64,000 nucleotides of DNA from Shewanella sp. OMA3-2 (GTDB lineage: Bacteria > Pseudomonadota > Gammaproteobacteria > Enterobacterales > Shewanellaceae), in the NCBI RefSeq assembly GCF_021513195.1, contig NZ_CP090974.1:3546001-3610000 (forward strand), in the 5' to 3' direction. This document shows positions 57,370-62,944 of the stretch, piece after piece (positions within the stretch are counted from its first letter, which is position 1; each line of letters starts with the position of its first letter). The notes under the pieces were generated by a model that was given only the letters and a program-made list of their open reading frames with translations, was not told the origin of the DNA and did no database searches. Position numbers and translations under genes: made by a program.

Positions 57370-57598
57370 GGTTAACCGATAAATGTCTAGTGCCCCTGAT
57401 ATTTCAAAGGAATGAAAAGCGTCAGGCAGCGATAAGATCGCACTAAGAGAGCCTCTATATGTGTTTGCTGTAAACGACAATTTGACAGCTAAATGACAGA
57501 CGAAGTAGATGAATTTGTTGATTGATTTTTATTTGACTGCAAAAGCAGTCAAATAAGTTAGGCTCGCCTATTGACTGGCGGAAGGCTCATATGTGTTA
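57370..57598. repeat. 229-bp direct repeat, copy B
   Basis: Near-identical to 51945-52173; about eight base differences were noticed. The right end is GTTAGTT, where copy A has GTTATAT. It carries the terminator-like stem for the minus-strand gene ending at 57596. Confidence 0.9.
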
Positions 57599-58141
57599 GT
57601 TACCATTTGCACGGTACTCTAAGATTCTCTGTTTTGCTAACTCAAGAGAGTTATCTTCCCAAATATCAACTTTACTACCCTCTACAGAATAATTATCAAG
57701 AAAATTCCGGGCATAATGCCAAGGATGATATTCCCAACCATTATTTTCTGCATTTATAGAATTACGAATCCAGAGTTCCCAGATTGCTACTTCGATTGTA
57801 TTTGATAAATGAAGCTGCTTTTTGACATAAGATTTCCAGTCACCATTAGTTGATTCAAAAAAGCTTGGATGTTTATCATTGAACTCTTTAAGTGCCACTT
57901 CCGTTTCTTTAGGTAACTTGTTCAGCGTGCTAATAACGTAAAGTTCAAAAAAGTAATCTAATGGTCTTTCAGCCTGATAGTAAGGTGCTAATGTAGTCAT
58001 GACATCACTATACGACTCGGGATATTCAGGCATAACAGGAGGAATGTATTGCTCTTGATTCAATTGATTTCCTTTCTCTATGGCTTCAACACTAAAGCCT
58101 ATAAATGCAAAGGCTAAAAATAAAACTCGCAGATTTAGCAT
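57596..58141 (-). CDS. unknown small periplasmic protein in a cassette-like unit
   Basis: A 181-residue protein. The ATG at 58141 follows AAAGGTAAG and begins a signal peptide MLNLRVLFLAFAFIGFSVEA. The upstream part of the frame is attC and intron sequence, hence rejected. The mature protein is acidic and aromatic with YPESYSDVMTTLAPYYQ and ELWIRNSINAENNGWEYHPW. I do not recognise the family. It starts 22 bp from the attC core and its two ends carry the inverted 11-mer GTTAGTTACCA, as cassette ends do. It is possibly exported by Sec; function unknown. Confidence 0.78.
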   Translation of the reverse strand: MLNLRVLFLAFAFIGFSVEAIEKGNQLNQEQYIPPVMPEYPESYSDVMTTLAPYYQAERPLDYFFELYVISTLNKLPKETEVALKEFNDKHPSFFESTNGDWKSYVKKQLHLSNTIEVAIWELWIRNSINAENNGWEYHPWHYARNFLDNYSVEGSKVDIWEDNSLELAKQRILEYRANGN

Positions 58142-58156
58142 ATGCTTACCTTTGGT

Positions 58157-58283
58157 AACTAACGCCGCCAACAACGGCAGGCTTGTTGTTGCTGATTTTG
58201 TGCAATAATGGCGAAGCCATGCACAAAATGAGCGACGACAAGACTGTCCAGAGAGCGCAGCGAACGATGTTGCTTGGCCTTGT
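58157..58283 (-). other. integron attC site, interrupted by the group II intron
   Basis: Read on the minus strand, with the intron removed. Core R'' is GCTTAAC (its last bases from 60233-60239), the L'' arm CCAAGCAACA, then a central stem ATTTTGTGCA..TGGC / GCCA..TGCACAAAAT, the L' arm TGTTGGCG and core R' GTTAGTT (58157-58163). L'' carries one extra G relative to L', the extrahelical base that sets attC polarity. The site length is about 135 bases. R'' is the complement of the GTTAAGC word before the ATPase gene (62938), as expected for one cassette. IntI is not in the window. Confidence 0.75.
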
Positions 58284-61298: not shown

Positions 61299-62126
61299 TT
61301 AGGCCACTAGTGCCAGTTTTTGCTTTGGTGGGACACCACCAATTGCTGTATTGGGTCTTTCATTGTTATAAAACCATAGCCATTGTGTCGCATGTTCCTG
61401 TACCTCGGCAATACTATTCCAAAGATATTGGCTCAGCCATTCGTATCGCACAGTCCGATTATAGCGTTCTACATAAGCATTCTGCTGTGGATTGCCAGGC
61501 TGAATAAATTTCAGTTCTACATCGTGTTTTTCAGCCCATGCAGCCAGCACCGCACTGATGTACTCTGGACCGTTATCACTGCGTATTTGTTTCGGTTTTC
61601 CACGCCATTCGATGATTTGCTCCAAGGTTCTGACCACACGCTCTGCTGGTAAGGAGAAGTCGACCTCTATCGCCAAGCCTTCACGGTTGTAATCATCAAT
61701 CACGTTCAATAACCTAATGCTGCGACCATCTTCAAGTTGGTCATGCATAAAGTCCATAGACCAACATTCATTGATTGCCTCAGGCACCGCCAATGCGTCC
61801 GGTTTATCACGCTTCAAGCGTTTCTTCGGCTTAATCCGTAGGTTTAGCTCCAATTCACGGTAAATTCTATACACTCGCTTATGGTTCCATCGGTAGCGTT
61901 TCACGTTACGTAAAAAGTAATAACACAGCCCAAATCCCCAACTTCTATGGGTCGATGTTAGTCGCTGTAACCAATCAGCAATCACAGCGTTTTCACCGCT
62001 GAGTTTTGCCTGATAGCGATAACAGCTCTCACTGAGTCCAAACAAGGCACAGGCAAATGCGATTGGAATGGCTTTATCATGCACCGCCTTTTGCGCCAGC
62101 TCCCGCCGCCGCGACGGCTTTACCAC
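61299..62126 (-). CDS. IS3-family transposase OrfB, copy 2
   Basis: Protein identical to the OrfB at 17626-18453, with the same DDE motifs (SMDFMHD, RSDNGPEY, NAYVERYNR). Intact, begun by GTG in the -1 frame relative to orfA. Confidence 0.95.
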   Translation of the reverse strand: MVKPSRRRELAQKAVHDKAIPIAFACALFGLSESCYRYQAKLSGENAVIADWLQRLTSTHRSWGFGLCYYFLRNVKRYRWNHKRVYRIYRELELNLRIKPKKRLKRDKPDALAVPEAINECWSMDFMHDQLEDGRSIRLLNVIDDYNREGLAIEVDFSLPAERVVRTLEQIIEWRGKPKQIRSDNGPEYISAVLAAWAEKHDVELKFIQPGNPQQNAYVERYNRTVRYEWLSQYLWNSIAEVQEHATQWLWFYNNERPNTAIGGVPPKQKLALVA

Positions 62127-62386
62127 TTTTTTTCGATGGCCTCTTTGAGTATTTCGGCTTTTAGACGCTCTTCGGCATACATTTTTTTGAGTCGTGAATT
62201 TTCAGCCTCTAACTCTTTCAATCGCGCCATCATAGAGGCGTCCATGCCGCCAAATTTGGCCCGCCACTTGTAGAAGGTAGCCGAGCTCATGCCGTGCTCA
62301 CGGCACAGCCCCGGAACTGGGGTGCCAGCTTCGGCTTGCTTGAGGATAGCCAAGATTTGGCTGTCGCTAAATTTTGATGTTTTCAT
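62120..62386 (-). CDS. IS3-family OrfA, copy 2
   Basis: Protein identical to the OrfA at 18447-18713, with a helix-turn-helix and leucine-zipper part. One silent base difference. Overlaps orfB at the A7 frameshift run. Confidence 0.94.
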   Translation of the reverse strand: MKTSKFSDSQILAILKQAEAGTPVPGLCREHGMSSATFYKWRAKFGGMDASMMARLKELEAENSRLKKMYAEERLKAEILKEAIEKKW

Positions 62387-62937
62387 GCAGAATCTCCCTG
62401 CGTATATAGTACGAGAAAATTCTACTTTTGAAATCAGCTTTTTTTAGGGGGGATTACCGATAGAATTTCTTTCCATGAAGAATATAATTAAAGTTTTCAT
62501 TTATAAAATCATCCGCATCGACCAAATGCTCTTCAAGAACTTTTTCTGACAATTCAAGAACATTTGAATTTGTAAATCTTGTTCCGTGTATAATACTCCC
62601 TTCGATGAATCCATCAATTCTCACAGCTTTATTTTTCTTTCCTTGCAGCTTCCAAAGATTTCCTTCTCTAGTCCATAAGTCGGTGTTTCCTTCGTAAGTA
62701 TATTCAACAACACTGTCATGGTTTGCGTTGCTAAATATTGTCCAAAGCACGCTAGGTCTAAAGGGTTCGGCAAGCAACCCCATAATGGTACTCTTTCCTA
62801 TTCCGTTAGAGCCTGCAATGACATGTAAACCTTGCTCAATCGGTATCTCCATCGAGAAATCTCTGATGCTTTTTAAATTTTTAATACTGACTTTCAATCC
62901 GGACATAATTACTCGATCTCGTGAATCTAGATTAGGG

Positions 62938-62944
62938 GCTTAAC
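62938..62944 (-). other. GTTAAGC core word at the start of the OLD-like cassette
   Basis: On the minus strand GTTAAGC (GTTRRRY) lies 32 bp before the ATPase start. It is the exact complement of the R'' core after that gene. The sequence upstream (62945-62995) forms a weak inverted repeat that may be the remnant of another attC or attI, but I cannot prove it. Confidence 0.45.

What the first reader, a model, noticed from the sequence alone, without database searches (positions are those of the whole stretch)
57596..62944. Integron-type cassettes without an integrase, with an attC site invaded by an attC-specific group II intron
Removing the intron (58284-60232) rebuilds a site with all attC marks on the minus strand: GCTTAAC and GTTAGTT cores, L''/L' arms differing by one extrahelical G, and a central stem. 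The ATPase gene is preceded by GTTAAGC, complementary to its own R'' core; the next gene has GTTAGTTACCA inverted at both its ends, as cassettes do. The intron occupies the bottom strand of attC, the known orientation of class C attC introns. No intI is in the window, so this may be a cluster of attC sites lacking an integrase, or the tail of a chromosomal integron.
Basis: partly seen in the sequence, partly recalled or inferred. Interest (0 to 1): 0.8.

Follow-up and report, generated by a model that had tools for sequence, protein, structure and literature searches.

The report
Integrase-less integron with duplicate attI site
A small bacterial gene-collecting array that lacks its own enzyme turns out to begin with a copy of the enzyme's docking site, and this Shewanella chromosome carries about eleven such docks but only one enzyme gene, which gives a testable reason why cassettes are scattered over these genomes.

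Summary
In detail: integron cassettes, with an attC site split by a class C-attC group II intron. Leaving the intron out gives a 140-nt bottom strand that folds at -33.0 kcal/mol (z -4.95); uninterrupted homologues exist in two other genomes of the genus. That part is known biology.

Window 62941-63278 is the attI, promoter region and first seven codons of an integron-integrase gene; the rest of intI is absent. The one intact intI of this chromosome lies 0.47 Mb away with its own attI and cassettes. The chromosome holds 11 firm attI copies. In the genus 32 of 129 genomes carry them, up to 15 per genome; 17 of the 32 have an intI beside one copy. An ORF of at least 80 aa starts within 100 nt of attI in 87 of 104 copies (controls 5 of 102, 5 of 103). 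One satellite family rides on tRNA-Ser islands with their own recombinase.

Likeliest reading: satellite docks loaded by one integrase in trans. The anatomy is shown; trans action is inferred, and 9 of the 32 genomes have copies but no intI match.

The parts
62941..63034 (-). attI copy (reads toward the cassettes on the minus strand; crossover G^TT in the core 62938-62944)
   Evidence: homologous to the stretch between intI and the first cassette at L013; aligned with 96 other copies; R1 E 3.1e-27 (R1 was built with this copy)
63035..63278 (+). intI leader (promoter region, degenerate LexA-like box about 63212-63231, RBS about 63245-63252, ATG at 63258 and seven intI-like codons); then the homology to intI stops
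   Evidence: 68% to L013 over 347 bp up to the intI start; truncation alike in satellite class A; strict LexA box absent here
62454..62906 (-). cassette 1, N-terminal piece of an ATPase gene split by an IS3 element (ATPase-Toprim candidate defence family)
   Evidence: PADLOC ATPase-Toprim_I-B positions 3-132; Pfam AAA_15/AAA_23
61259..62459 (-). IS3-family insertion in cassette 1
   Evidence: NF033516 229 bits; four other copies in the chromosome, reported as 100%
60242..61288 (-). cassette 1, C-terminal piece of the same split gene
   Evidence: PADLOC ATPase-Toprim_I-B positions 176-389
58154..58283 (-). attC of cassette 1, larger part (R' GTTAGTT, L', L'')
   Evidence: fold z -4.95 of the joined site; homologues not interrupted in G072 and G100
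60233..60242 (-). attC of cassette 1, remaining part of R'' (GCTTAAC once joined)
58284..60232 (+). class C-attC group II intron in the bottom strand of attC
   Evidence: junctions as in relatives
58801..60150 (+). intron RT/maturase, 449 aa, TTG start
   Evidence: TIGR04416 409.2 bits
57596..58141 (-). cassette 2, 181-aa protein without a family hit
57153..57598 (+). 3' end of an IS110/IS1111-type element flush to R'' of cassette 2; the rest of that attC is missing
   Evidence: 93-98% over about 450 nt to eight other loci; flush junctions; intact relative with IS110 transposase in L242
52216..53739 (-). third cassette-like gene (507 aa, no family hit)
51945..52173 (+). second remnant of the same kind of element, flush to the R''-like end of the third gene
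   Evidence: 97% to 57371-57598
54557..57072 (-). three ORFs (326, 90, 332 aa) of a REP-associated tyrosine-transposase-like gene between the two parts of the array
   Evidence: NF047646 44 bits, below its cut-off of 80, for the one tested

Best explanation
The window holds a satellite integron: a duplicated attI with the intI promoter region but no intI, loaded with at least two and probably three cassettes and since invaded by a C-attC intron, an IS3 and two IS110/IS1111-type elements. It is one of eleven firm attI copies in a chromosome with a single integron integrase. Shown: the attI homology, the shared truncation points, the variety of first cassettes at the attI crossover triplet, the single intact intI, the tRNA-Ser islands that carry one satellite family. 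Inferred: that IntI made at the master locus inserts and excises cassettes at satellite attI sites in trans, which would spread cassettes over the chromosome and produce integrase-less cassette clusters such as those reported from Shewanella. The copies spread partly on a tRNA-Ser-targeting integrative island (class B) and partly by an unknown route (class A, including the window).
For: attI homology up to the intI start codon. One TIGR02249 match over cut-off in the genome, 349.7 bits. Eleven attI matches at E <= 3.9e-17 in the chromosome, the master's included, two weaker at E 0.004-0.005. Genus: 32 of 129 genomes by DNA; 253 matches at E <= 0.01 in those 32 by the R1 model. Among 148 genomes of the order, those outside the genus gave one match each in 9 genomes, E 3.6e-4 to 0.0099. 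In 17 of the 32 an intI match lies beside one attI: at 240-242 bp in 14, at 460, 636 and 1,290 bp in G037, G098 and G045 (coordinates). ORF of at least 80 aa starting within 100 nt of attI, reading away: 87 of 104; controls 5 of 102 and 5 of 103, shuffles 1.6%. attC-like motif (my own pattern) on the cassette side 24 of 101, other side 1 of 102, wrong strand 2 of 101. GTTR at the crossover in 94 of 96 copies that could be anchored (GTT itself was required for anchoring). 18 of 21 satellite pairs with alike right flanks (>=85% over >=500 nt) in two genomes have different first cassettes (after dropping one pair whose flank is a transposase-like gene). attI columns 0.86 identical against 0.53-0.68 in the leader up to the LexA-like segment. 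LexA-like box in 12 of 12 intI-linked copies and 35 of 94 others; controls 0 of 103, 0 of 102, 2 of 104, 0 of 104.
Against: No recombination at a satellite was observed. The one within-genome case of an identical block at master and satellite attI (G070, 2.36 kb) is an IS91-like element that can move by itself. Nine of the 32 attI genomes (G004, G031, G032, G036, G077, G086, G090, G119, G126) have no intI match at 1e-40 and six more have one that is not beside an attI. Three of the 18 pairs with different first cassettes (L120/L154, L178/L198, L198/L202) come from two genomes that both lack intI. The window's own LexA box is degenerate and 59 of 94 other copies lack it. Strict GTTRRRY cores in only 21 of 96. 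attC-like motif seen beside only 24 of 101. In G094 and G098 the intI match is in pieces. The attI hairpin is not significant on its own (z -0.48) and RNAalifold found no structure.
Confidence: 0.57

Rival explanations
1. Decay: each satellite was a complete integron whose intI was later deleted; the cassettes were loaded while its own integrase was there. This is the usual account of CALINs.
For: Nine of 32 genomes have attI copies but no intI match at 1e-40; degenerate LexA box and heavy IS load in the window; partial intI coding beside two copies (L122, L193); split intI in G094 and G098.
Against: Only 2 of 94 copies not at intI show intI coding by tblastn within 1 kb (a stub of 7-10 codons is too short to show). 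Class A copies at different loci share a truncation after 7-10 intI codons and class B copies another before the start codon (read by eye), which points to spread of already truncated units.
Confidence: 0.25
2. Arrival ready-made: satellites travel between species with their cassettes on islands or other DNA and do not act as docks in their present host.
For: Class B units sit at tRNA-Ser(TGA) with their own recombinase; their right flank in this genome is 91-96% identical to that in four genomes whose permease gene is 78-79% identical.
Against: In the same island family the first cassette differs between L015, L194 and the group L115/L143/L147 although the flank is 91-96% alike, so cassettes changed after the island spread, in some host.
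Confidence: 0.14
3. The conserved 94 bp is not attI but the end of another attC-targeting element, as the flush repeat on the other side of the array proved to be.
For: The repeat at 57153-57598 looked the same at first (flush to a core, many copies) and is an IS110 end.
Against: The stretch runs on into the promoter region, LexA-like box, RBS and first codons of intI, at 240-242 bp from the intI match in 14 genomes.
Confidence: 0.04

Closest known systems
Sedentary chromosomal integron (complete intI-attI-cassettes)
   Same: attI, intI promoter region with LexA-like box, cassettes in one orientation, attC
   Different: no intI at this locus; eleven attI copies in the chromosome for one intI
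CALIN / SALIN (cassettes without a nearby intI), reported as frequent in Shewanella (PMC9229058, section 14 read)
   Same: cassettes far from intI
   Different: headed by an attI with intI leader; [quoted passage not shown]
Class C-attC group II introns, already reported in Shewanella integrons (PMC9229058, section 14)
   Same: ribozyme, RT, bottom-strand attC insertion opposite to the cassette gene
   Different: nothing essential; six identical copies in one chromosome, one of them after a terminator-like hairpin (L014)
IS1111-attC elements (Post and Hall 2008, seen only as a reference; otherwise recalled)
   Same: IS110-family transposase in intact relatives, end flush to the attC core
   Different: in the window only two truncated 3' ends remain
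Delta-attI gene cassettes (PMC12901181, abstract and outline seen)
   Same: displaced attI pieces, shown there to be used by IntI1
   Different: there part of gene cassettes of mobile integrons; here attI plus intI leader heads separate chromosomal arrays
attG sites (Loot et al. 2024, recalled; the term appears in the listings)
   Same: cassettes outside the master array
   Different: here the receiving site is a near-copy of attI, not a generic genomic site

Membership tests
Integron (complete) | intact integrase gene beside attI | tested here: not met
   only leader and seven codons in the window; the intact gene is at 3136115-3137050
Integron (complete) | attI site next to the first cassette | tested here: met
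   62941-63034, by homology; function not tested
Integron (complete) | gene cassettes with attC | tested here: met
   one attC rebuilt and folded, with homologues that are not interrupted
Integron (complete) | cassettes recombined by the integrase | not testable with these tools
   needs a recombination assay
CALIN | two or more attC sites without intI nearby | tested here: inconclusive
   one attC (split by the intron); those of cassettes 2 and 3 are cut by IS110 ends; IntegronFinder not available
Class C-attC group II intron | group II ribozyme and RT/maturase | tested here: met
   Rfam RF02001, RF01998, RF00029; TIGR04416; that it is class C was not tested by a class model
Class C-attC group II intron | insertion in the attC bottom strand, opposite to the gene | tested here: met
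   relatives: TTGT before the intron in 49 of 55, TA after it in 63 of 73; YAACRC 40-150 nt upstream in 34 of 50 against 10 of 50 further up
IS1111-attC | IS110-family transposase and insertion at the attC core | tested here: met
   for an intact relative (L242: PF01548, PF02371) and for flush junctions; the window copies have no transposase left
attG insertion | cassette at a generic site without attI | tested here: not met
   attI present

The most novel reading that the evidence does not exclude
One integron integrase serves a chromosome-wide network of attI docks in trans. The docks are non-autonomous integrons that multiply on their own, some on tRNA-Ser islands, as MITEs do for transposons, so that the cassette reservoir of these bacteria is distributed rather than kept in one array, and part of the CALINs and SALINs are loaded docks rather than wrecks.
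Probability: 0.44. Interest if true: 0.82.

Novelty: new variant of a known kind. Interest (0 to 1): 0.62.

Why it matters
Integrons are described as one intI with one attI, and cassette clusters without intI have been proposed to be degraded integrons. IntegronFinder does not look for attI outside class 1, because such sites are poorly described (PMC9024848, passage seen), so attI-headed arrays would be filed as CALINs. If satellites are live docks, one integrase controls gene content at about ten places, and the origin of CALINs and SALINs in Shewanella becomes a direct experiment. A tRNA-Ser island with a recombinase and an attI would be a vehicle that carries a cassette dock between species.

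Tried and rejected
The repeat flush to cassette 2 (57371-57598) was first taken as a second attI, then as a long attC; it is the 3' end of an IS110/IS1111-type element. The identical 2.36-kb block at master and satellite attI in G070 looked like proof of cassette exchange; it is an IS91-like element, and the claim was dropped. A consensus structure for attI: RNAalifold found none; my first stem was set in the wrong columns; in the right register 86.6% of cells pair and the covariation score exceeds all 500 shuffles, but only one of ten pairs changes on both sides, and the window's single sequence is not significant. I do not claim a folded attI; R1 is a sequence-only model. One search gave 22 pairs of satellites with alike flanks; on checking the flanks I dropped one, L159/L177, whose shared flank is a transposase-like gene, so 21 remain. 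L159 is counted among the 94 copies not at intI, but an intI lies 1.3 kb from it, behind that gene. A clean insertion footprint at the permease-pepB site was sought: at least 15 attI genomes have a short gap (1,439-1,552 bp between probe ends), but the relatives with a long gap carry different inserts, so only the right limit (about 63898-63917) is clear. Literature: searches listed no paper on multiple attI copies in Shewanella that I could recognise from titles, abstract starts and the passages read; one search was spoiled because attI matched 'attitude'. The library lacks most subscription papers, so this is no proof of absence.

Notes to correct: an earlier count said six more identical introns; it is six in all. 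The entry says 6 own copies and 27 other genomes; it is 7 own copies and 24 other genomes.

Full report
What was checked. The window is bases 3546001-3610000 of a one-contig 4.09-Mb genome.

The intron and its site. Six copies, the window's included, are identical over 1951 nt; one more is 93% alike. Of 161 related loci from named genomes 80 were kept; in these the 5' junction was found in 55, with TTGT before it in 49, and the 3' junction in 73, with TA after it in 63, as expected for introns in attC cores. An attC-type core lies 40-150 nt upstream in 34 of 50, against 10 of 50 in a control window. With the intron left out, the bottom strand of the window's site folds at -33.0 kcal/mol against a shuffled mean of -19.15 (z -4.95). 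G072 and G100 carry homologues that run through the insertion point. One intron copy (L014) sits behind a terminator-like hairpin instead.

The array. From attI outwards: cassette 1, an ATPase-Toprim-like gene split by an IS3; its attC with the intron; cassette 2, a 181-aa protein of unknown kind; then the flush 3' end of an IS110/IS1111-type element where the attC of cassette 2 should continue. Three REP-associated transposase-like ORFs follow, then a remnant of another group II intron (53720-53794), a third cassette-like gene and a second IS110 remnant.

attI. Bases 62941-63278 match the region between the first cassette and the start of intI at the complete integron (68% over 347 bp). That integron has an intact intI (324-aa open frame; 349.7 bits, cut-off 265), divergent cassettes including one with a HEPN-like integron domain, and attC-like sites. 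It lies about 0.47 Mb from the window's array (coordinates). In the window the homology ends seven codons into intI.

Census. A sequence-only model of attI (R1, from 97 sequences) finds 13 matches in this chromosome at E <= 0.01, eleven of them at E <= 3.9e-17; one of the eleven is the master. One search found the stretch in 32 of 129 genus genomes, listing 143 places with at most six scored per genome; R1 gives 253 matches in those 32, up to 15 in one. In 148 genomes of the order, searched with stricter filters, nine genomes outside the genus gave one match each, E 3.6e-4 to 0.0099, which I take as background. Integrase: 85 of 129 genomes have a TIGR02249 match at 1e-40, 77 of them over the cut-off. 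Of the 32 attI genomes, 17 have an intI match beside an attI (240-242 bp in 14; 460, 636 and 1,290 bp in G037, G098 and G045), six have one elsewhere and nine have none.

Do satellites hold cassettes? I examined 106 copies from 25 genomes: 105 of the 143 places and one more of the own chromosome; 38 places were not fetched. Twelve lie at intI by tblastn; 94 do not, one of which (L159) has intI 1.3 kb away. An ORF of at least 80 aa begins within 100 nt and reads away from attI in 87 of 104 copies with enough sequence; controls gave 5 of 102 and 5 of 103, shuffles 1.6%. With a lower limit of 50 aa it is 89 of 104 against 23 of 102 and 10 of 103. An attC-like motif, by a pattern of my own, lies on the cassette side in 24 of 101 copies, on the other side in 1 of 102 and on the wrong strand in 2 of 101. 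The crossover core could be anchored in 96 of 106 copies, which required GTT; it is GTTR in 94 and strict GTTRRRY in 21. Of the eleven own copies eight show a first ORF by a looser rule (40 aa within 120 nt); three do not.

Turnover. Of 21 pairs of satellites from two genomes with right flanks alike over at least 500 nt at 85% or more, 18 have different first cassettes without detectable homology and 3 the same (one further pair dropped). The pairs are not independent: five loci of one island family give ten of them, seven different and three the same. Three of the 18 come from two genomes that both lack an intI match.

What satellites keep. The LexA-like box CTGY-N8-RCAG upstream of intI is present in 12 of 12 intI-linked copies and 35 of 94 others; four control windows gave 0 of 103, 0 of 102, 2 of 104 and 0 of 104. 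Among 54 copies with a leader landmark, attI columns are 0.86 identical, the leader 0.68, 0.53 and 0.58 in successive parts, the box segment 0.80. That attI is kept better than its neighbourhood suggests use, though intI-linked copies are among the 54 and copies were found by their attI in the first place.

How they spread. Class A copies (the window, L012 and others; 14 aligned) share a truncation after 7 to 10 intI codons. Class B copies lose homology before the start codon and are followed, convergently, by a tyrosine recombinase of about 470 aa (PF00589). Relatives of it at 1e-20 occur in 38 of 129 genomes. Of 17 loci that I read with both recombinase and attI, 14 have a tRNA-Ser(TGA) gene next to the recombinase and 3 (L262, L264, L273) do not; five loci with the recombinase but no attI in the stretch read all have the tRNA. 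In both own copies the tRNA 3' end is repeated on the far side of at least one cassette. So class B is an integrative island with an attI dock. Its right flank here is 91-96% identical to that in four genomes whose permease gene is 78-79% identical, so it moved between species. The route of class A is unknown. The window's locus, between a permease gene and pepB, is short in at least 15 attI genomes and longer in this one, its four closest relatives by that gene (G035, G003, G042, G119) and at least three others (G004, G077, G126).

Reading. The anatomy supports satellite integrons. That the single integrase loads them in trans is the simplest account of changing cassettes at copies without intI, but it is not shown; genomes with copies and no intI show that a resident intI is not needed for satellites to persist, and loss of intI or arrival with cassettes could explain those. 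The known parts are the intron, the IS110/IS1111-type insertion and the existence of scattered cassettes in Shewanella (PMC9229058). Of that paper I read section 14 and the passages found for attI, LexA, tRNA and other terms; it counts CALINs and single orphan cassettes, and none of its five mentions of attI concerns attI at those.

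Noticed in passing
L014 1559-3509: An identical copy of the attC intron sits after a terminator-like hairpin, so the same intron seems to use two kinds of target.
   Followed up: partly
window 51945-52173, 57153-57598; L242: IS110/IS1111-type ends flush to attC cores are common in the genus (29 of 129 genomes match the 228-nt end), while PMC9229058 (section 14) reports no IS interrupting attC in its integrons.
   Followed up: partly
L223 12124-13727, L224 5601-7219: tRNA-Ser(TGA) islands with a 471-476-aa tyrosine recombinase facing an attI; related recombinases about 48% alike occur in further genomes and were not followed.
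   Followed up: partly
window 63460-63617 and 63724-63887: A dispersed repeat of about 160 bp with a terminator-like hairpin; more copies in the chromosome, some beside attI copies and some not.
   Followed up: no
window 13034-19797: A tRNA gene followed by an integrase-like ORF (13286-14524; PF00589) and a few genes, probably a separate genomic island.
   Followed up: no
L248, L249 (G070): A 2.36-kb IS91-like element with a tyrosine recombinase gene of its own lies exactly at attI, twice in tandem at one satellite.
   Followed up: partly
L159, L177, L172: A transposase-like gene (IS1595-like by recall, not tested) interrupts the intI leader at attI copies of three genomes; at L159 intI follows behind it.
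   Followed up: partly
L013 7253-10001: The intact intI is next to what looks like a polyunsaturated fatty acid synthase cluster (recalled resemblance to pfaR and pfaA, not tested).
   Followed up: no
L223 4564-6063, window 60242-62906: Two satellites carry ATPase genes alike to candidate phage-defence families (HEC-04, ATPase-Toprim).
   Followed up: no
window 53720-54138: Remnant of another group II intron on the minus strand next to the third cassette-like gene.
   Followed up: no
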